The translations under genes were made by a program, and so were the position numbers. Shown piece after piece: positions 3,272 through 27,411 of a stretch of 64,000 nucleotides of DNA; within the stretch, counting starts at the first letter, position 1; the number at the start of each line of letters is the position of its first letter. The DNA is taken from positions 1,218,501 to 1,282,500 of the forward strand of contig NZ_CP144374.1 of assembly GCF_040451425.1 (NCBI RefSeq), written 5' to 3'. A model generated the notes under the pieces. It made no database searches. It saw only the letters and a program-made list of their open reading frames with translations, and had not been told where the DNA came from. Source of the stretch: Thermodesulfovibrio sp. 3462-1 (lineage in GTDB: Bacteria > Nitrospirota > Thermodesulfovibrionia > Thermodesulfovibrionales > Thermodesulfovibrionaceae).

Positions 3272-3495
3272 ATGAAATCAATTGAACTTGCTTTAAAAAT
3301 GGAAACAGATGCTGTAAAGTTTTACACAGAAGCAGCAGAGAAAGTTTCCCATCCTGTGGGCAAAAAATGTTTATGACTATTGCAGAAGACGAGAAAAATC
3401 ACATTAAGGTGATTGAAAAAGCCCTTGAAGGATTAGAAATCCCAGCGGATACTTTATCCTGTAAGCAAATTATGGTATATTATAGATATGTTTAA
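3272..3495 (+). pseudogene. Ferritin-like/rubrerythrin-type diiron protein fragment, frameshifted and truncated
   Basis: The first 34 codons read MKSIELALKMETDAVKFYTE and onward to VGKKCL, then stop at 3374-3376. The -1 frame continues from 3367 as MFMTIAEDEKNHIKVIEKAL and ends at 3493-3495. Together these form the first half of a ferritin-like diiron domain, with E..FY and AEDEKxHI helices. The junction is an A6 run (3362-3367); one additional A would join the frames. Even joined, it has only about 76 residues against about 140 for a full four-helix domain, and its tail (CKQIMVYYRYV) overlaps the next ATG. It looks like a decayed gene; a sequencing indel would explain the frameshift but not the missing second half. 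Confidence 0.7.
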
Positions 3496-15153: not shown

Positions 15154-16730
15154 TTATATCCCTCCTTTTCTTTCATGACAATCAGTGCAGGTTTTTGGTT
15201 TCTGTAACTCCATGTTTTCATGACAACTAATACACATTCCATGATAAGCAGATTGAAGTCTTGGTCTTGCAGGCACCTGAGAGTCAAATGATACACTGTG
15301 GCAACTAACACAAAGAGGTGCTGTCTTTGCTTCGGCTTCTTCTTTACTTTTATGATGACAACCTTTACAAATTGTATTTAAATCCTTATGGAAATATGTT
15401 GCAACCTTGCTTTGATTTGATATTTCTGCAAGTTTTTTTACCATTTTATAATGAGGCATCTTAACAGGATTAAACTCCTTTTCAATATGTTTTATCGCAA
15501 CTTCTTCCTTCACTTTTTGAGGTGAAACAATGAATGGAGCAACCTTTTCAATCTCTTTTTTACCACTGTGGCATCTGCTACATATTTCTTTGTTTGCCAC
15601 CTCTGTTTTAACTGGTGCAATAAAGTAATGACAGCCAATGCATTCTTTCTTACTGGTTAAATTTCTATGACAGCCCTGACAGCTCATCTGCGAGTTTTGC
15701 GAATGATAGGCTGTAAGAATATTTACAAATCCACCTTCCTGTTTGCCTTTTAAATTATGACATTCTCTACAACTTTTTAGTGTTTCATGATGGCAGCTTC
15801 TACATGTCTTATTATTCTTTTCGTGAAACTCATGATCAAACGAAACTCCTTTCATTTTTGCTTCTTCAATGTTTATGAAGGCAATCTTTGGCTGATCCCT
15901 TTCAGGTCTTGGAATATCTTTAAGTTCCTCAATTGTTTTATATTTTCCTGTATGACACTTTGAACACTTTAGTGGTCCTGCTTCCTTAGCCTCTAACTTA
16001 TTATGTAAATGACAGTTTAAACACAAGCTGTGAAAGGCTCTTTCAATATTCCAATTGTCCTGTTTTGCTATTTTTACTATTTTTGAAAGTTCCGGTCCTT
16101 TCTTCTTATTTAAATCATGACAGTAATAACAGGACTGCTCAGTTCCTTTCTCATATACCAGTGCAAGTTCTTTGTTTTTCTCTTCAATGTCATATATATG
16201 ATGGCAAAGACTACAGTCTTTTTTTATGTTTTTTCACATGTTTGTCATGAAGGGAAAAATCAAACTCCACTGAAGGATGTTTAACTATCATATCATCATT
16301 TTCTTTCTTATGGCATTCCCTGCAGGAGAGAATTACAGGCCCTGTTTTAATTTTTTCAAAGCTTAATTTTTGATGACATCTCAGGCACTGCTCATGATAG
16401 GCATTCTTAAGCAGTGAAGAATCCTTTCTATCAATGTTTTTAGGAAACTCAAAGGAAAATTCACCGAATTTGTCCTGAACATGACAATCCTGACAAATTC
16501 TTTCATCAGGCTTTTTAAAAGCCTTTGTCAGAGCTTCAACATGCTTTTGATGTTCAAATAAGACCGTGCCATATTCAAGTCTGCCAAAATATTTCTTTAT
16601 GTGCAATTGCGATAATATCTTTACCTGCCTCTGGGCTTTTACTGACAGGTTCTGAAGACAGCGAAGCATAGATACCTAATCCAGAGAAAACTACAAACAG
16701 CAAAATTCCTATAAACCCAATTTTCCTCAT
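15154..16730 (-). pseudogene. hmcA: 16-heme cytochrome c (HmcA-type), frame disrupted twice
   Basis: Periplasmic multiheme cytochrome that exchanges electrons with hydrogenase/c3 partners in Hmc complexes. Summed over frames there are 16 C-x2-C-H motifs, the count of Desulfovibrio HmcA, in about 525 residues. The ATG at 16730 overlaps the hmcF stop (ATGA) and begins a signal peptide, MRKIGFIGILLFVVFSGLG. That frame stops after about 50 codons (FWQT, stop) near a T4 run (16586-16589), while the heme-bearing frame starts alongside it. A second break is at an A7 run (plus-strand T7, 16219-16225). There the upstream frame ends KKHKKRL, and a +1 shift restores KKDCSLCHH, a heme site. Either this gene is decaying, or it contains sequence errors or recoding. 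Confidence 0.8.
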
Positions 16731-18055
16731 GCTCTCATCTCTTCAGGAATTTCCATTTGCTCTGCAATCATGTCTGTTAAAAACTTTACATGAACTCCAA
16801 GCTTGTAATAGTCATTTAAGTCTTCAATTCCCTTATGACAGGTATGACATGGTGCAATCACTATTTTTGCTCCTGTGTCTTTTATCTGTTCTGCCTTTAT
16901 TCTACCGCCTTCAATTCTTGCCATCTTCCATGGCGGACCCGCATCAATCATTCCTCCGCCAGCAGAACAACAGTAGTTATGGTCATCTTTTGGCGACATC
17001 TCTATAAAGTTTTCGCAAAGACTGTTTACAATATATCTGAGTTTTTCTCTTAGTCCTCTATATCTGATGATATTACAGGGATCCTGCAATGTTACAGGTT
17101 CTTTAATTTTTTGGCTGATTTTTATTCTGTTGTTTTTTAAGAGTTCGTAGAAGAACTCAACACCATATAGATAGGGAATTGGATTTTCCTTCCAGCCAAT
17201 AAGTCTTGTTCCTTCATATATGCCTGTTCTGTAGGCATGTCCGCACTCTCCCATAACAATTCTCTTAACATTCAATTTAAAGGCAACTTCATAGTGAGTT
17301 CTCACCACTTTCTGAAAAGTTTCATGATCCTGAGCATAAAAAGATTTGTTTGTATAATCCCATCCATCACAATCAGGCATTGTCCAGTCAACCTTTGCCA
17401 CATTCATTATCTTTGCCATGTTAGCAAGAAGCCCAGTCATGTATTTTGCCTCAAGTCCATGGGCAAGATAAAGAATTTCAGCGTCTTTTTTACCCACTGG
17501 AATTCTTGCATTTTTAATTTCTGCCCTCAGTTCATCTTCAAGCCATTGAACTGTATCAAGCCATTCATCCTGTCTAAACCACAACATATTTGTTGTCTGC
17601 ATGTGACTCAATGCCTGATCCTGAATATACTGAGGAACTGCGCCAATAAGGCAACATATTCTTCTTACAAGGCTAATTAAATAAGCAATATCAATACCAA
17701 AGGGACAGAACTGAACACATCTCCGGCAAAGATTGCATTCAGAGAAGGCAATTCTTGCATATTTTTTTATGTCCTCCTTACCAACATTGCCATTTTTATT
17801 GAGTATATCCCATATTGTTTGCTTTACTTTGGCTGCAGGTGCATAGGTTGGATCATTATCATGGGATAAATAATGATGACAGGAAGTAGAACACATTCCA
17901 CATCTAACACAGGTATCTACAAAGACTTTAAGCCTTGCAGAGGCTTCTCTTTTTAAAACCCAATCAATAGCCTTTTTTATTCTAACTTCATCAATTTCTT
18001 CTAAGGTTTTGTCAATTCCTATGTCTGCTACTGTCTTTCTAACAAACTCTGTCAT
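16727..18055 (-). CDS. HdrD-like iron-sulfur subunit, HmcF/TmcB/DsrK family
   Basis: Cytoplasmic [4Fe-4S] subunit of 442 residues, related to heterodisulfide reductase HdrD. Two ferredoxin-like clusters lie near the N-terminus: C-V-R-C-G-M-C-S-T-S-C-H and C-N-L-C-R-R-C-V-Q-F-C-P. Two cysteine-rich CCG-type segments follow in the C-terminal half, including CGHAYRTG, DPCNIIRY, CCSAGGGM and APCHTC. In the family these carry a catalytic-type cluster that takes electrons from the membrane cytochrome b toward cytoplasmic sulfate-reduction steps. It starts 1 nt after the cytochrome b gene and overlaps hmcA by 4 nt. Unlike its neighbours its frame is intact. Confidence 0.88.
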   Translation of the reverse strand: MTEFVRKTVADIGIDKTLEEIDEVRIKKAIDWVLKREASARLKVFVDTCVRCGMCSTSCHHYLSHDNDPTYAPAAKVKQTIWDILNKNGNVGKEDIKKYARIAFSECNLCRRCVQFCPFGIDIAYLISLVRRICCLIGAVPQYIQDQALSHMQTTNMLWFRQDEWLDTVQWLEDELRAEIKNARIPVGKKDAEILYLAHGLEAKYMTGLLANMAKIMNVAKVDWTMPDCDGWDYTNKSFYAQDHETFQKVVRTHYEVAFKLNVKRIVMGECGHAYRTGIYEGTRLIGWKENPIPYLYGVEFFYELLKNNRIKISQKIKEPVTLQDPCNIIRYRGLREKLRYIVNSLCENFIEMSPKDDHNYCCSAGGGMIDAGPPWKMARIEGGRIKAEQIKDTGAKIVIAPCHTCHKGIEDLNDYYKLGVHVKFLTDMIAEQMEIPEEMRA

Positions 18056-18056
18056 A

Positions 18057-18733
18057 TCAATAATCCCTTGAATGTCTTACTGCACCAAACTCACTTCCAA
18101 TATGAGTCCTTATGAGCCAGAAGAAAAACATGTGGCTGAGTCTCGTAAAAGGAATAGTAGCAAGCATGATTTCTCCCGTAATCATGTGAATCGTAAGCAT
18201 TATTCTATACTCAAAGAAAAGCTCATAATGGGCAAGAAATCCTGTTATAAAAGGTGCAGCTACAATAATAATTGCCATATAATCTCCCTACCAGTAAGAA
18301 ATCTCACATCTGGTTGAATTATTCTACGGATAACAAGCAGAATTATAGCAAATATGACAAGCAATGTCATTGCATCAGCCAGGGACTGAGGCAAACTCCA
18401 CCAGCTAATCTTCCATGAGTCATACCACAGCTCGATATGACCGGCTAAAAATAAAGGAGTTAAAATAACGCATATGTGAAAAACAAAAGTCAGCAATGTA
18501 AACCATGGATGTCTTCTCATACTTATACTTCCAAAGGGTATAAGCCAATGAATGATAGAACGAAGAGTGTATTTAAAGCTCAGATAAGGATATATTACCT
18601 TTTCTTTTTTTGCAAGCTGAATGCTGTGATAAACACGATAAAATATCCCGGCAAAAAACATCACAAAGGCAAGCCAGACAAGTGGACCTCTCGCCAGTGT
18701 ATAAATTGATGGATCTCTGAAAAACTGCTCCAT
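18057..18733 (-). pseudogene. Cytochrome b membrane subunit, HmcE/TmcC (NarI-like), single frameshift
   Basis: Membrane heme b subunit expected to have about 225 residues. The first frame (from ATG 18733) gives 157 residues with helices LVWLAFVMFFAGIFYRVYH, FTLLTFVFHICVILTP and LVIFAIILLVIRRI, and ends FLTGREIIWQLLL. The remainder, DYMAIIIVAAPFITGFLAHYE, continues to the natural C-terminus RHSRDY in a second frame. A -1 step at GAGATTAT (about 18280-18288) rejoins them as FLTGRE-DYMAII, so one G appears lost. The start overlaps the propeller gene stop, and the end lies 1 nt from the HdrD-like subunit. Whether the cell makes a functional subunit depends on recoding or on a sequence error. Confidence 0.8.
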
Positions 18734-20029: not shown

Positions 20030-20263
20030 GTGGGTATGCGCAAACCTATATCTTCGCATACATCACTTCAACGCCTCCATGATGTCTCTCCCTTTTTTTC
20101 TAAAAATCTTTAACAAAAACTAATGCCAGATAATCCTCTAAAATTTTCCCTTTAACCTCCAGTGGCAAAAGACCGCTAAGAATACTTATTTTCAAAGAAG
20201 GAGAAATGAATAGAAATTTTAAAAGTTTTTTCAGCTTTTGTTTGATCATCTAATTTCCATTTT

Positions 20264-23200
20264 CTACCATTCATTTCTTGCCCCTCCAATTATTTTTATT
20301 TCTTCCTCTGTTAAATCATAGAGTTTATAAACCAATTTATCTATTTCTTTTTCAAGTTCTTTGACTTTTGCTTGTTTTTGTGGATTTGTTTCGTAGTCCG
20401 GAGATTGGGTGAGGGAGAGGATTTGGGAGACGAGATTTTCTATCTCTTTGACTATGTGATGGTTTTGGGGGGGTGATGGGGGGAATGAAAATTCTTTCAA
20501 CATACTGGTTTGACAATAAAAAGCCCGTGTCAGCATATTGATGGACGTATGTTTTGACATAAAAATCAACTAATTTTGAATTTAAAATTCCCAATAAAAA
20601 TCTTAAATTTTCTCCAGTCATAAAAGCCATCGAATCAAGAATGTATAAACCTTTTGGAACAAAACAAAATGAAAATTGTTGTGTCACCCTCTGCCACACA
20701 ATCTTTTCCTTTTCAAATTCGGGGTAGTAGTCTGATGCCCATCTTTGTAAAGCATACCACTCATACCTTTTGCAAGTCTCTTCTTTGTTCCTTTGCATAA
20801 GTCCATCTTTATATTGAAGTAAATAACTGTATAAAGCTGGATATTTCTTTCTAAATTCACTTTCTGCTAATTCAGAAGCTCCTGTAATATTTTGATTTTT
20901 GTGTAATGGAAAATGCCAAGGTATATATATCAACCACAATCCTGCCCACTTGTATCTCCACCTTTCTATATCCCTTCCTCTCAAAACTGGTTTTATTATC
21001 TCTTCTGTTCTTTTTCTCTCTTCTTCTGTTTTGCAGTTAGCCAAAATCCTGTTTCTTGTTTCTGTATCAATTATAAATGCCTCGTTAAAGCCTGTTTTTA
21101 TTCCAAAGTAAATTTTTACATCCCAATCTTTTAATGGCTTTCCAATCTTTTCTATCTTTTCTTTGAGTGCTAAAACCTTTTCATCAGCAAGTGTCCAGGC
21201 ATTTTCAGAGAGTTTTTGTTGTGGGATTGTGTTTTGATTTTTACTGATATATTCAATTACATCACCATCAACTTTACCTACATTTACAAATTTCACTTTG
21301 TGGTTATCATCTGGTTTTGCTTTTTGAAACAGTATTATGTTTGTATCAACAGTTTGTTCAAATACAGGGTAACCACTAAAATCAACGAGGGTTAAAACTT
21401 TTGTGTTTTCTTTAAGAAGCTTTCTTAATTTCTCTCCATACTTTGCCCTCATCCATTTGTTGCTTGAAATAAAACAAAGGATACCTTGTGGCAAAAGCAA
21501 GTTATAGCCTTTTTCATAAAAATAAACATAAATGTCTGCTGTCGATGCAAATACCTTGTACCCTTGCTGTTGAAGAATTGGCTTTAATTCCTTGATCCTC
21601 TCCTGCCTCACATAAGGCGGGTTGCCTATCACTATGTCAAAGCCATCCTCTACCCCAAACATCCATTCTGAATCAAACCAATCCGCTTTTGCCATTTGCG
21701 AAAAAATATCAATTTCTACTATCTTTTGAACTGAAGTTTCAGGCCAGCCAGATTTAATAAGTAAACTCTTTATTTCTTCTCTTATTTCTTTGGCTTTATT
21801 TTCAATTCTCTTTTTCTCTTTGCGATTTTTTATTCTAAAAAATTTTTTATGTAAGGTTTTCAAATCCTCTTTGGGTTTTTCAATTTCCTGTGGAATAAGC
21901 GCAAGTTGCTTAGGTCTTTCAAGACTAATCAAGGTATCTGCAGAAACAAATTTAGTCTCTAAGTGAGGAAGGGGTCTAATCCCAAAATTGGGTTTATTAA
22001 AATCAACCTTTTGGTCTATCAATAAGCTCAGAAAGAATCTTAACTTACATATTTGAATAGCTATAGGTTGAATATCAACACCATAGATGGAATTCTCAAT
22101 AATATAAAGTTTTCTTGCATAATCTGGATAATTTATAGATTCATCAAAGATTTCATTCACTTCTTTGAGTAAATTTTCTCTCTCCTCTTTATTATCTATT
22201 TTCAAAACCTTCTCAACTTCCAGTAAAGCTTTATTAAATTGAAGTTCATACCATAATTTATTATCCGGATCTATTTTACTCAAAACATGGACTAATTTAT
22301 GAACTACTCCCATTGGAAAAGCACCAGAGCCAACTGCAGGATCTATAACTTTAAGAGAATCTATAGCCTTTATTAAATTATCTTTTTCAAAGGGAGTCAA
22401 ACCTACCTCTCTTTCTTCGTAAGAAAGAATTTTCTTAAGTTTTTCTTCATCAATAGCTGTTTTTGTCTTAAAGTATTCAAGAAGAGCTTCTTCAACCATA
22501 AAATCAACAATTTCTTTGGGAGTATAATAGGAGCCTGTTGCTTTTCTTGCAGTAGTTTGAGTTTCTGGATTATAACAAGCAAGAAGATTTTCAAATATAT
22601 GTCCTAAAAGTTCTGGATCAAGAGAAACTTCTACATCAATAGGCGAGGATTCATCTGCAGTAAAGTTGTAATCTTTTAAAATATTAATAAGCCCTCTAAC
22701 TTTTGCCTTCTTCTTTTCTCCATAGAAATCACTTAAATCCACTTCTCTTTCAGAAGAAAAGAAGAGAAAATCTGGAATCTTTGCCCTTTTGTCTTCTCTA
22801 CGACTAAAACCATCTATATAGTTGGAATCTTCATCTAAGCATTCAAAAAGGCCACCATTAATAAAAGGAACCTTGCTAAAAAGCTTTATAAATTCGTCCT
22901 CAGAGATAAGAAGTTTATTTTTGTATCTATAAAGAGTTTTTACTCCATAGTGCGTTCTATTTTCCAAAAAGGTTCCATCTTTTGTAAATTCTCTCTCTTC
23001 AGGATATCTATTTAAAGTTGCAAAAAACAAATTCTGAAGAACGGCATTGTAATAATTATCAACCTCTCCAAAGTCTTTGACTATCTTAGTCAAAAAGGAT
23101 TCCTCAAAAATCTCTTCAGGAATTAACTTCTTTTCTTTCAAAAACCAAACAAAAATAAGCCTTGTAAGAAGCCTTATTAGATTTTCCTCAGAAACTCCCC

Positions 23201-23798
23201 CAGGAAACCAGACATTTTTTAGAGCCCAGGCATACCAGTTTTGAATCTCTGTATAAAACTCTTTGGTAAGGGGAAGGGTTGAAAAGGCTGAAATTAGGGT
23301 TTTTAATTGGAAAAAATCTCCCTCATATAGGGCTTTAAGAAAAGTTCTATATGGCCTTCCTCTTTCTACAAAATAGGTATACCTCTTGTAATAGCTGAAA
23401 GCTGTTTTGCCAGGTTCATAAATCTTATGAACCAAAGAAAACCTGAAATTTCCCTCTAAATCATAAAAGGTAAAAAGACCTGCATCAACCCCTATGTTGT
23501 CTGTTGTTCTTAAGATTTTTTTAGCAAGCTCAAATTGTCTTTTCTTGCTTGACCTATCAGAAAGCTCATACTCTACCTTTACACCAAAGGCTTTTAAAGT
23601 GTTATTATCTCTTAATCTAACCGTCAAAATTTCTCTTATATCCGAGAACTTTTCATCCTCAAAATCAAAAAGCCTCTTTTCATAAAATTGAGGATCTAAT
23701 TTTTTGAACTTCCAATAAAGAACATCATCTTTTAAGGTTTTTAAAGAAAAATTATGAACTAACTTCTCCAGAGCTTCACGAAGAATATCGCTTGACAT
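20264..23798 (-). CDS. Eco57I-like adenine-N6 DNA methyltransferase (type IIG-like), C-terminus off-frame at a C7 tract
   Basis: Large DNA-modifying enzyme paired with a helicase. The SAM motif DPAVGSGAFPMGV and the target-base motif IGNPPYVRQ mark a gamma-class N6-adenine methyltransferase. The N-terminal third (ALEKLVHNF onward) and the C-terminal third resemble type IIG enzymes with a TaqI-like target-recognition region. Reading from ATG 23798, the frame as given ends at 20352 (1148 residues) with an unlikely tail PKPSHSQRDRKSRLP. At a C7 run (plus-strand G7, 20467-20473) the other frame continues QNHHIVKEIENLVSQIL to 20264, with the conserved tail KELEKEIDKLVYKLYDLTEEE. An in-frame ATG at 23834 exists but lies well inside the helicase end. 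Nuclease activity is not evident. Confidence 0.8.
20467..20483 (-). repeat. Poly-C tracts (C6 and C7) in the methyltransferase gene
   Basis: The plus strand shows G7 (20467-20473), TGAT, then G6 (20478-20483); on the coding strand these are C6 and C7. They are the longest G/C homopolymers I noticed in this AT-rich window and sit at the point where the conserved C-terminal tail changes frame. Such tracts change length by slipped-strand pairing. Confidence 0.75.
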
Positions 23799-26700
23799 AG
23801 GACTTACCATCAATCTTTTGGTTTTCAATAGCAATTATTACCTCTTCTGGCTTTTCTTTAAGGAATTTTTCAATTTTATCGAGAAAATCTTCCCCTATCT
23901 CAGATTTTATTTCTTCTAATTTGCTAACAAGCTTTTCCAAAAGCCCTTTTAATTTCTCCTTGTTTCCTTCTTGCTCATAATTTCTTATTTTTTTACAGAT
24001 ATCTTCAAAATCTGCAATTTTTCCTATTACATATTCAGAGAGCGTACGATACCTTGTTATGTCTTCTATAAGATCTGAAATGAAGGAGTGATAATTATTG
24101 AGTTCTTCATAGGGCATTTCAAGAATTAGTTTTAATGCCCTTTGAGAGGACTCAAATAAATCTTTAGAAGATGTCCTAATATCATTCTTTGCAGGAAAAG
24201 ATTTTTCAAGAATTTGATGATAAACTTCCCAGAAGTCAGAGCTTAAAGGTAACTGCCTTTCTTCAGGATGGGCTTTTATTTTCTCAAACACTTCTTCAAA
24301 GGTTGTAGTTTTTGCCGCTCTTTCATCGTATCTTTGATATCCAACGAAAAGGTCTTTACCTCTTTTGATAAAAACCATAAGTTCATTTTCTGATTCGGTT
24401 TTAGCAACTTTAATTCTACTTGGGAGATCTTTTAGGCTTTCAACAAGCTCACGATGCTCTGTTAAAATGCGGTCATATTCTTTAAACACTTTGGTATAGA
24501 AACTTTCCTCCTCTTCATCCTGAGGCTTAGTTGTAAGTCTCCGATAGAGTTCGGAGGACTGGGGCTCTTCATCGGGACTAAAAATTTTGGCATCCTCACC
24601 AAGAACATTGTGAATCATGAACATTTTAGTTTGAGCAATTTCTCTTGACCGCACATAGTCTGCACCTTTTTGTGTTGGGAAAAAGTTTACAATGTAAATT
24701 TCATCATAGACCTTTTTGGCAATACGATTTATACGTCCAACTCTTTGAATAACTCTCACAGGATTCCAGGGAATATCATAGTTTATAACCTCTCCGGCTC
24801 TGTTTAAGTTAAAACCCTCTGAAAGTTTATCTGTTGTAAGAAGTATATCATACTCATCTCTTTGTTCTTTATATTGAGCATCAAAATTGGCATATATTTT
24901 TTTTATGATAGTTTTGCTTAAATTTCCAGCAGCTGTAAGAACTCGACTACCAAAGTGTTCATTAAGAATTTCTTTTAGATACTTTGCAGTATCTATATAT
25001 TCTGTATAAATTACAACTTTTCTTCTCTTTTCGTTAAACTCTTTAACAACTTCTACAAGTTTCTGAGCCTTTGGATCTTCTTCAAGTAAATTTAGATCTT
25101 CCATTTCCTCCTTTAGCTCTTTGAATAACTGAATATCTGATTCAATATCCCTGAAGAATTCATCCCTTAATTTAAACTTATTGATATCATAAACTTTGTA
25201 AAAAGAAGAGTCCAATTTTTCCTCTTCTAATTGCTTTTTGTAATTCTCTAATATTTCTAAAATTTCCTCTTCGTCTTTTTCATAAATTCGCTCTATAAGC
25301 CTCCTATCAAGAATAAATTTATTGGTTTTTTGAGCAAACTCTAAAGCTTTCTCATAAACTTTCATAAAATTCCCAAGGCTCTCATAGAAAGCTTTAAAAC
25401 TACTTTCAAACCTTTTAACAAGAAGCCTTCGCATAAGATCATAAAGACTTTTCTGATAAGTATAGAGAAAAGGATCTTCCTTTTTTTCTAAATATATTTC
25501 TGGCTCGTCGAAAAGATCCCTTGAGATGCCCTTTTCATATAAAATTGGTAAATAAATAGCTCCTTTAAATCTTCCACCTTCATCAACAGTGTAAAATGAG
25601 TTTATAACTTTATCGTAAAATTCAAGTTGCTCATCTGTTAATTCATAAAAAGCCTCGATTGGGTCTTTTACTTCAGGAAATTCAATTCTCTCTTTATCTT
25701 TGAAATATTTTAAATCCAGGCGATTTCTCCTTATTACCACAGGCTCAAGAATAGAGCGAATTTTTCTTGCAATTTTTTTTACTCTCTGATTGACTTCGAT
25801 CAGATGTTCTGAATTTAGAGAACTTACTTTTTTTAAGAAAAGATCTTGATAAAATCTTAGAGCTCTACTTTTGCGTTTAGGATCACTTGAATTCCAATAT
25901 TTTTTTATATAGGCCAGTTTTTTGAATTCGGTTTCGTATTGTTTAAAGCGGGCTTCAAGATCTCCATCATAAACTATTGATGATTTTTTGGGAATAGTAA
26001 AAAGTTTAAGAAGAGCAAATATGTCTGATGGGCTGTTATTAAAGGGAGTTGCGGAAAGAAGAAGAACTGTTTTTCCTCTGCAAATTTCTCTCAAGTAGTG
26101 GTAGTTTTGTGTTCTTTCATTTCTAAAGCGATGAGCTTCATCTACTATGACCATTTCAAAATCGTGATTATTATTGACAAATTTCAGAGCATCTTCCAAT
26201 TTTCCAAGAGACCATACCTCCCAATCCCAAAGTTTAAAATCTTCCAGATATTTTTTCCAACCTGAAGTTTTAGCATTATCTCCAATAAGATGTGGAGGAC
26301 AAATCACTATTCCTCTTTTACCAAGAGCTTTGGCGGTAAGACATGCAATTATAGTTTTCCCAAGTCCCACAACATCTGCAAGAATGCAGCCACTGTGAGC
26401 TTCACAATTAGCAACTGCCTGAGAAACAGCTGAAAGTTGATAATCATAAGGTTTGTATTTCCTTTCAAGTAAAAGTCTTCTTAAATCTTGAACAGGATAC
26501 AGACCTTGATGTAAATCTAAGTATATTTTTAACAAATATGCATAGGCTTCAAAAGGAGTTATGTTTCGGAAAAAAGTTTCATTCTCAAGAATTTCTATAA
26601 GTTTTTGGACATCTTCAGGAGTTAACTCAATAGCTCTTTCCCAAAAATTGTCAAAATAGTTTTTTGCATCCTCAAAACCATAATCTTTTATTTCTACATT

Positions 26701-27222
26701 AAATTCATCTTGGGATTCAAGACCTGCTCGCGTTAAATTGCTACTGCCTGTTATAAAAAGTCCTGGAAGTATGACCTTCGAATTTTCATCCATGCTGAAT
26801 ATGTATAATTTGGCATGATTGGGTTCTTTGGTTTTTCTAATAATGAGTTTATTTTCTAAAAAAAGTCTTTTGAAAAAATCAACCTGTTCATAAACCTCAG
26901 AATTATCAAGATCAGCTGAAGTAAAAGCTTTTTTAAAGGATTGAAAAAAATCATCTTTAATTATGTTTGAATTAAAAACTTTTAATCTTTTTGCACCTTC
27001 GTATATACCATAAACTCCACTATCAATATTAAGCCCTACAAGGATTTTAAGAAATCCTTCTTTAAGTTTGCCCTCTTCATAAAGTTCCCTTAAAATCTTG
27101 TATAAAACTTTAAAACCTGAAAAATAGAAAAAGCCTACCAGAAATTTAAGTTCAGCACTATTCTTAATTAGTTCCTTAAGTCGTTTTTCAAGATTCTTTT
27201 CAGAAGTATTGGTTATAAACAT
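23776..27222 (-). CDS. Phospholipase D-like/SNF2-type helicase fusion (defence-type)
   Basis: A protein of 1148 residues from the chosen start. The N-terminal ~200 residues form a PLD-like domain with H-A-K-L-Y-I-F and GSSNLTRAGLES, the half-site of HKD nucleases. A superfamily 2 helicase follows: DVVGLGKTIIACL (motif I), IVDEAHRFRNE (II), LLLSATPFNN (III), and QRVGRINRIAKK (VI) in the RecA2 lobe. The C-terminal ~350 residues are charged and helical. ATGs exist at 27234 and 27222; the promoter -10 ends 3 nt before the first, so the second is more likely. It overlaps the methyltransferase gene downstream. Similar helicase-methyltransferase pairs occur in restriction-like and BREX/DISARM-like defence systems; restriction activity is inferred. 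Confidence 0.8.
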   Translation of the reverse strand: MFITNTSEKNLEKRLKELIKNSAELKFLVGFFYFSGFKVLYKILRELYEEGKLKEGFLKILVGLNIDSGVYGIYEGAKRLKVFNSNIIKDDFFQSFKKAFTSADLDNSEVYEQVDFFKRLFLENKLIIRKTKEPNHAKLYIFSMDENSKVILPGLFITGSSNLTRAGLESQDEFNVEIKDYGFEDAKNYFDNFWERAIELTPEDVQKLIEILENETFFRNITPFEAYAYLLKIYLDLHQGLYPVQDLRRLLLERKYKPYDYQLSAVSQAVANCEAHSGCILADVVGLGKTIIACLTAKALGKRGIVICPPHLIGDNAKTSGWKKYLEDFKLWDWEVWSLGKLEDALKFVNNNHDFEMVIVDEAHRFRNERTQNYHYLREICRGKTVLLLSATPFNNSPSDIFALLKLFTIPKKSSIVYDGDLEARFKQYETEFKKLAYIKKYWNSSDPKRKSRALRFYQDLFLKKVSSLNSEHLIEVNQRVKKIARKIRSILEPVVIRRNRLDLKYFKDKERIEFPEVKDPIEAFYELTDEQLEFYDKVINSFYTVDEGGRFKGAIYLPILYEKGISRDLFDEPEIYLEKKEDPFLYTYQKSLYDLMRRLLVKRFESSFKAFYESLGNFMKVYEKALEFAQKTNKFILDRRLIERIYEKDEEEILEILENYKKQLEEEKLDSSFYKVYDINKFKLRDEFFRDIESDIQLFKELKEEMEDLNLLEEDPKAQKLVEVVKEFNEKRRKVVIYTEYIDTAKYLKEILNEHFGSRVLTAAGNLSKTIIKKIYANFDAQYKEQRDEYDILLTTDKLSEGFNLNRAGEVINYDIPWNPVRVIQRVGRINRIAKKVYDEIYIVNFFPTQKGADYVRSREIAQTKMFMIHNVLGEDAKIFSPDEEPQSSELYRRLTTKPQDEEEESFYTKVFKEYDRILTEHRELVESLKDLPSRIKVAKTESENELMVFIKRGKDLFVGYQRYDERAAKTTTFEEVFEKIKAHPEERQLPLSSDFWEVYHQILEKSFPAKNDIRTSSKDLFESSQRALKLILEMPYEELNNYHSFISDLIEDITRYRTLSEYVIGKIADFEDICKKIRNYEQEGNKEKLKGLLEKLVSKLEEIKSEIGEDFLDKIEKFLKEKPEEVIIAIENQKIDGKSYVKRYSS

Positions 27223-27237
27223 GTCAAATCCCATTTT

Positions 27238-27265
27238 TATATAACAGTAATTCCCTATTTGTCAA
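27238..27265 (-). promoter_or_regulatory. Promoter of the helicase-methyltransferase operon
   Basis: Minus-strand TTGACA (27265-27260) and TATATA (27243-27238) with a 16-nt spacer, directly before the helicase gene. The predicted start site is near 27231, which favours translation from the ATG at 27222. Between this promoter and the feo promoter (27266-27411) I see no gene, only an imperfect hairpin near 27336-27353. Confidence 0.5.
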
Positions 27266-27411
27266 GCTTATTGCATCACATAAAAATCTATTCAAAAGGA
27301 GTTTTTACCTTTTTCTTGACACCGTGTTGTCCTTGCATCCCTTGTGGGTGCGAAAAGGAATCTGTAACGAATGGTATTTCAAGTAGATTTTAAATGAGGC
27401 AATTCGGGGGC

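What the first reader, a model, noticed from the sequence alone, without database searches (positions are those of the whole stretch)
20467..20483. Possible phase-variable switch in a DNA methyltransferase
A C6-ATCA-C7 double tract lies where the TaqI-like C-terminal tail changes frame. With one C less in the second tract the conserved helical tail (KELEKEIDKLVYKLYDL) is in frame; as given, the protein ends with an unrelated 30-residue tail. Tract-length variation is a known on/off or specificity switch in type IIG genes of other bacteria.
Basis: partly seen in the sequence, partly recalled or inferred. Interest (0 to 1): 0.65.

Follow-up and report, generated by a model that had tools for sequence, protein, structure and literature searches.

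The report
Frame slip in a DNA methyltransferase
A one-base slip in a run of Cs cuts the usual end off a DNA-methylating enzyme in a heat-loving sulfate-reducing bacterium; it looks more like a sequencing error or one-off mutation than an evolved on/off switch, though a switch is not ruled out.

Summary
On the coding (minus) strand, C6-ATCA-C7 lies at 20483-20467, and a conserved 67-residue helical tail continues one frame away; the protein as given ends with 37 unrelated residues (not 30). The gene is an Eco57I/TaqI_C-type N6-adenine methyltransferase, the second gene of a 7.4-kb island with a PLD-SNF2 helicase. Calling it type IIG is not established.

A phase-variable switch is not supported by what can be tested. 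C7 runs are no more common in this genome than composition predicts. No in-frame relative has 7 Cs there (0 of 42; 3 have 6), and the C-rich codons spell a conserved IPPITPQ peptide. The same assembly carries 6 other frame breaks in 5 genes out of 113 compared with one close relative, most of them one-base indels in A/T runs; the reverse comparison gave 0-1 in 114. The tail keeps 13 of 13 conserved positions, so the slip is new, reversible or a sequence error.

I favour an error or one-off slip (0.60) over a true switch (0.25). The switch stays open because the genus carries very long poly-C/G tracts beside chemosensory genes, and M.TaqI works without such a tail. Raw reads or a second isolate would decide.

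The parts
20352..23834 (-). N6-adenine DNA methyltransferase ORF as given (1160 aa), Eco57I + TaqI_C domains
20467..20473 (-). second C tract, C7 on the coding strand; the reading frame leaves the conserved tail here
20478..20483 (-). first C tract, C6 on the coding strand, codes PP of the conserved IPPIT
20264..20472 (-). conserved C-terminal tail, one frame away from the body (part of ORF 20264-20569); helical hairpin in a homologue's model
20352..20466 (-). 37-residue unrelated tail read in the body's frame
23776..27234 (-). partner gene: N-terminal PLD-like domain + SNF2 helicase (1152 aa), overlaps the methyltransferase ORF
   Evidence: relative of it found on the same strand beside the methyltransferase relative in 65 of 79 loci
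20031..27410 (.). inserted two-gene island; in same-genus genome G014 the two flanks lie about 20 bases apart
18287..18290 (-). another frame break nearby: a base missing in a membrane cytochrome-b-type (DsrM-like) gene
16217..16223 (-). another frame break: A7, one base too many, in a multihaem cytochrome gene
16587..16597 (-). another frame break: extra T in a T4 run in the same cytochrome gene
3355..3370 (+). another frame break: A run one base short in a rubrerythrin-like gene, whose 3' part is also missing

Best explanation
The frame change is a one-base length difference in a short C run that exists only because it codes the conserved peptide IPPITPQ. It is either a sequencing/assembly error (about 0.35) or a one-off, recent slip in the sequenced culture (about 0.25), not an evolved switch. 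The gene itself is the methylating and, by its TaqI_C domain, DNA-recognising subunit of a two-gene restriction-modification-like island with a PLD-SNF2 helicase partner. Shown: the frame change, the conserved tail, the island, the partner, and other frame breaks in the assembly. Inferred: that the C7 is erroneous or fortuitous, and that the partner cuts DNA.
For: Relatives carry body and tail in one open frame: 42 of 48 distinct loci that had both parts (103 loci given, 51 without a pair, 1 without hits, the window's own copy and 2 duplicates set aside). In those 42 the longest C run near the junction is 6 (3 loci), never 7. 10 runs of 7 or more in the genome vs 10-31 expected. In the same genome accB has an in-frame C8, so such a run alone says little. 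ORFs of close relative G012 show 4 frame breaks in 3 genes of 57 matched in the window and 2 in 2 genes of 56 in 60 kb elsewhere; the reverse gives 1 of 57 (a gene-start difference, my judgement) and 0 of 57. Of the 6, 5 are one-base indels, 4 of them in A or T runs. Only 1 mid-gene stop codon was seen against these indels. The tail keeps 13 of 13 family-conserved positions, so there has been no decay behind the slip.
Against: The other breaks are clustered (three in one electron-transfer gene cluster, two in adjacent phoU/pit genes, one in a rubrerythrin-like gene that is also shortened), which fits true gene decay as well as local errors. The single contig is rated 99.98% complete. The genus does carry long poly-C/G tracts beyond chance. 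An intact tail behind the slip is also what a reversible switch predicts.
Confidence: 0.6

Rival explanations
1. Phase-variable switch: replication slippage changes the second C tract, so that cells alternate between a full-length methyltransferase and a tail-less form (off, or altered).
For: C7 meets the cut-off of 7 or more G/C used for Campylobacter (PMC6321876). Type IIG enzymes of H. pylori switch by C tracts (PMC3936762). The tail in the other frame is intact, 13 of 13 conserved positions. Same-genus genomes have C/G tracts of 8-17, some at orthologous places with different lengths.
Against: The tract is short and no longer than composition predicts. It is not kept in relatives (0 of 42 with 7). 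PMC6321876 reports isolate variation for tracts of 8 or more in C. jejuni. Other one-base breaks in the assembly lie in genes not expected to switch.
Confidence: 0.25
2. True, irreversible frameshift: early decay of an acquired restriction-modification gene, like the broken electron-transfer and phosphate genes of the same strain.
For: The strain's breaks come in clusters and include larger deletions. A same-genus homologue, SKYB9 (L106), is a multi-stop pseudogene.
Against: No other lesion in 3.5 kb of this gene or in the 1152-aa partner. The tail has not drifted.
Confidence: 0.12
3. Programmed +1 ribosomal frameshifting on the C run makes some full-length protein from the C7 gene.
For: The tail lies in the +1 frame after CCC-C, a proline context known to favour +1 slips (recalled, no call).
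Against: 42 of 48 distinct relatives with both parts need no shift, and no relative keeps a shift site at the junction except the SKYB9 pseudogene.
Confidence: 0.03

Closest known systems
Helicobacter pylori JHP1272 / HP1353-HP1354 type IIG enzymes with C tracts (PMC3936762, passages read)
   Same: An adenine methyltransferase gene in which a 3' C tract decides whether a C-terminal extension is read
   Different: There the added part is a TRD-like domain that changes specificity, and two tract states were observed; here the tail is a helical hairpin (homologue model) and only one state is known
CamA, BrxX/PglX, M.BseCI, LlaBIII, MmeI and M.TaqI methyltransferases (structure matches)
   Same: Same methyltransferase plus recognition-domain fold; CamA rows reach the tail region (Z 28-30, model range up to 1146)
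   Different: The M.TaqI rows end at model residues 1090-1092, before the tail, although M.TaqI is an active enzyme (activity recalled)
Type-2 BREX-related (BR) systems (PMC12839542, passages read)
   Same: An HKD(PLD)-SNF2 helicase with an N6-adenine methyltransferase
   Different: Those have a DUF499 ATPase and nearly always DUF3780; the island here holds only two genes
DISARM (DrmD/DrmMI; PADLOC and NCBIfam matches)
   Same: SNF2 helicase and adenine methyltransferase related to DrmD and DrmMI
   Different: The helicase scores far below the NCBIfam DrmD cut-off (165 vs 610 bits) and there are no further genes in the island

Membership tests
SSR phase-variable gene | mononucleotide tract long enough to slip (7 or more G/C as a cut-off, 8 or more with isolate evidence in C. 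jejuni) | tested here: inconclusive
   C7; cut-offs from PMC6321876 passages; not above composition
SSR phase-variable gene | tract kept at this place in relatives | tested here: not met
   longest C run 6, in 3 of 42 in-frame relatives; none with 7
SSR phase-variable gene | one-unit change moves the gene between a conserved full product and a truncated one | tested here: met
SSR phase-variable gene | different tract lengths within a culture or between isolates | not testable with these tools
   no reads and no second isolate of the species were available
Eco57I/TaqI_C-type N6-adenine methyltransferase | N6-methyltransferase core with NPPY motif and TaqI_C recognition domain | tested here: met
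   Pfam hits above curated cut-offs; NPPY invariant in the alignment
Type IIG restriction-modification enzyme | endonuclease and methyltransferase in one polypeptide | tested here: inconclusive
   best PADLOC names are type IIG but no nuclease family in this protein; PLD domain in the partner
DISARM | core genes drmA, drmB, drmC in the locus | tested here: not met
   island 20031-27410 holds only the helicase and the methyltransferase
Type-2 BREX-related system | DUF499 ATPase (and DUF3780) beside helicase and methyltransferase | tested here: not met
   no third gene in the island; definition from PMC12839542 passages
H. pylori-type specificity switch | the optional C-terminal part resembles a recognition (TRD) domain | tested here: not met
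   tail is three helices (1094-1114, 1123-1144, 1148-1156) in the L040 homologue model

The most novel reading that the evidence does not exclude
The C run is a real slippage switch of a new sort: it toggles the enzyme between a tail-less form, equivalent to M.TaqI and still able to methylate, and a tailed form whose helical hairpin is needed to work with the PLD-SNF2 helicase. Cells would thereby turn restriction on and off while keeping self-methylation, in a thermophilic Nitrospirota genus that also carries long poly-C/G tracts beside chemosensory genes.
Probability: 0.08. Interest if true: 0.65.

Novelty: not a real feature. Interest (0 to 1): 0.25.

Why it matters
If the switch were real, it would extend slippage-controlled DNA methylation to a deep-branching thermophile and give a case in which methylation and restriction are uncoupled by a tail. 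As it stands, the case shows that a C run spelling a conserved peptide, in an assembly with other one-base frame breaks, should be checked in reads before it is called a switch. The long tracts beside chemosensory genes in the same genus are a better place to look for phase variation.

Tried and rejected
Old or programmed frameshift: rejected as the main account, because 42 of 48 distinct relatives with both parts read through in one frame and the window's tail has not drifted.

A same-place frame change in the same-genus SKYB9 copy (L009/L089/L106) first looked like a recurrence. It is a pseudogene with many stops, so I do not count it. The frame breaks of L008, L065, L068 and L101 lie elsewhere in their genes; the stop counted for L096 lies near the end of its tail.

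Two tail-like pieces elsewhere in the same genome (L002, L005) are remnants beside another methyltransferase or a small ORF, not alternative tails at this locus.

Viral contigs: no relative found. Tandem repeats around the site: none. Papers: no paper in the library holds 'Thermodesulfovibrio' with 'phase variation' or with 'homopolymeric tract'; a wider search listed nothing on this genus.

Fold comparison: families that are not listed are not excluded by it.

Full report
What is there. On the plus strand 20467-20483 reads G7-TGAT-G6, i.e. C6-ATCA-C7 on the coding strand of a 1160-aa ORF, 20352-23834. Pfam finds Eco57I (E 1.7e-43), N6_Mtase and TaqI_C. After the second tract the ORF reads 37 unrelated residues. 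One frame on, an open stretch carries QNHHIVKEIENLVSQIL...LEKEIDKLVYKLYDLTEEEIKII. The PADLOC profile PDLC03612 covers the body to position 1190 and the other-frame piece at 1157-1244 of 1247, so the two belong together.

Where it is. The window lies in a 1,818,996-base single-contig genome. Its genus appears to be Thermodesulfovibrio: the same-genus handle G003 has a matching 6697-base contig that is recorded as Thermodesulfovibrio sp. SKW4. The gene overlaps an upstream gene for a PLD-like plus SNF2 helicase protein. A relative of that helicase lies on the same strand in 65 of 79 genome-contig loci that hold a relative of the methyltransferase; at least 5 of the other 14 had 5 kb of room upstream. 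In L028 both are one open frame of 2210 codons. The pair occupies 20031-27410; in same-genus G014 the matching flanks lie about 20 bases apart, so the pair is an inserted island. No third gene is present, so DISARM and type-2 BREX-related systems are not met as memberships. The best profile names are type IIG, but no nuclease family was found in this protein.

Relatives at the junction. Of 103 loci, 51 held body and tail together, including the window's own copy and two duplicates; 42 of the remaining 48 read both in one open frame. Of the other six, L008, L065, L068 and L101 are broken elsewhere, L096 has a stop near the end of the tail, and L009 (=L089) is a many-stop pseudogene. The typical peptide is IPIPPITPQNQ, so the C-rich codons are explained by coding. 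The longest C run in 30 bases around the junction is 6 in 3 of 42 in-frame relatives and shorter in 39; none has 7. The tract is thus not a kept feature.

Is the tract unusual? The genome has 10 C/G runs of 7 or more. Markov models of order 1, 2 and 3 predict 31, 10 and 15. For 8 or more, 6 are observed vs 6.2, 1.6 and 2.4; for 10 or more, 2 vs 0.8, 0 and 0. Only the very long tracts exceed chance. One C8 lies in frame inside accB, a gene not expected to switch.

How clean is the assembly? I compared ORFs of close relative G012 with the window's genome. In the window, 57 of 67 ORFs matched and gave 4 frame breaks in 3 genes: a rubrerythrin-like gene, a multihaem cytochrome gene (two) and a DsrM-like gene. 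In three stretches of 20 kb elsewhere, 56 of 59 matched and gave 2 breaks in 2 adjacent genes (PhoU-like and PiT-like). In reverse, 57 of 59 window ORFs gave 1 (a gene-start difference, my judgement) and 57 of 58 gave 0. ORFs of G014 and G002 confirm the DsrM break and one of the two cytochrome breaks, and DNA alignments to five relatives agree for the DsrM break and the A7. Five of the six are one-base indels, four of them in A or T runs; the sixth goes with a deletion of about 120 bases. A mid-gene stop was seen once. This pattern suits homopolymer sequencing errors, but the clustering and the deletions suit true decay. I cannot separate the two without reads.

The tail. Behind the slip the tail keeps 13 of 13 family-conserved positions, so the slip is recent, reversible or an artefact. 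A model of homologue L040 (mean pLDDT 75.9; tail blocks mostly around 90) makes the tail a helical hairpin. CamA, BrxX and M.BseCI align into that region, while the M.TaqI rows stop at model residues 1090-1092. M.TaqI is an active enzyme (recalled), so loss of the tail need not mean loss of methylation. This is the basis of the novel reading, which nothing here tests.

Known cases. H. pylori JHP1272 and HP1353-HP1354 switch activity and specificity through C tracts (PMC3936762, passages). There the extra part resembles a recognition domain, unlike the hairpin here. PhasomeIt uses 7 or more G/C as a cut-off and cites isolate variation for 8 or more in C. jejuni (PMC6321876, passages).

Verdict. 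Observation confirmed; switch not shown. Error or one-off slip 0.60, switch 0.25, decay 0.12, programmed shift 0.03.

Noticed in passing
G000:C1:1451276 (L193), G012:C1:1925411 (L190), G002:C1:1330336 (L182): Poly-C/G tracts of 11, 10 and 15 lie about 58-61 bases upstream of the same PAS sensor-kinase gene in three species: an orthologous tract with varying length, a candidate promoter-type phase-variable site.
   Followed up: partly
L169 (G012, C15) and L189 (G008, G16): A C/G tract near the start of a chemoreceptor (MCP) gene next to cheY differs by one base between two species: with 16 the ORF runs through the tract from an upstream ATG, with 15 only a start just before the tract remains open.
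   Followed up: partly
L172, L173, L176, L185, L194: Further tracts of 8-17 upstream of or beside MCP-like genes in the genus.
   Followed up: partly
L170, L174, L175: G8-G9 tracts inside small SAM-methyltransferase genes in three same-genus genomes, in frame as given.
   Followed up: no
window 15154-18733: Electron-transfer gene cluster (DsrMKJOP-like) with three frame-breaking indels in two genes that are intact in same-genus genomes.
   Followed up: partly
L153:1054-2290: Adjacent PhoU-like and PiT-like genes are both broken in this genome but intact in G012 and G014.
   Followed up: partly
L028:1671-8300: PLD-SNF2 helicase and adenine methyltransferase fused in one 2210-codon open frame in MAG ZGR_13_1_3.bins.10.
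   Followed up: no
L104:15617-18739 and L005: Another methyltransferase of this genome has its own, different C-terminal end and a leftover conserved tail just downstream; a second tail piece sits on a small ORF about 11 kb away. This may record past exchange of recognition domains.
   Followed up: no
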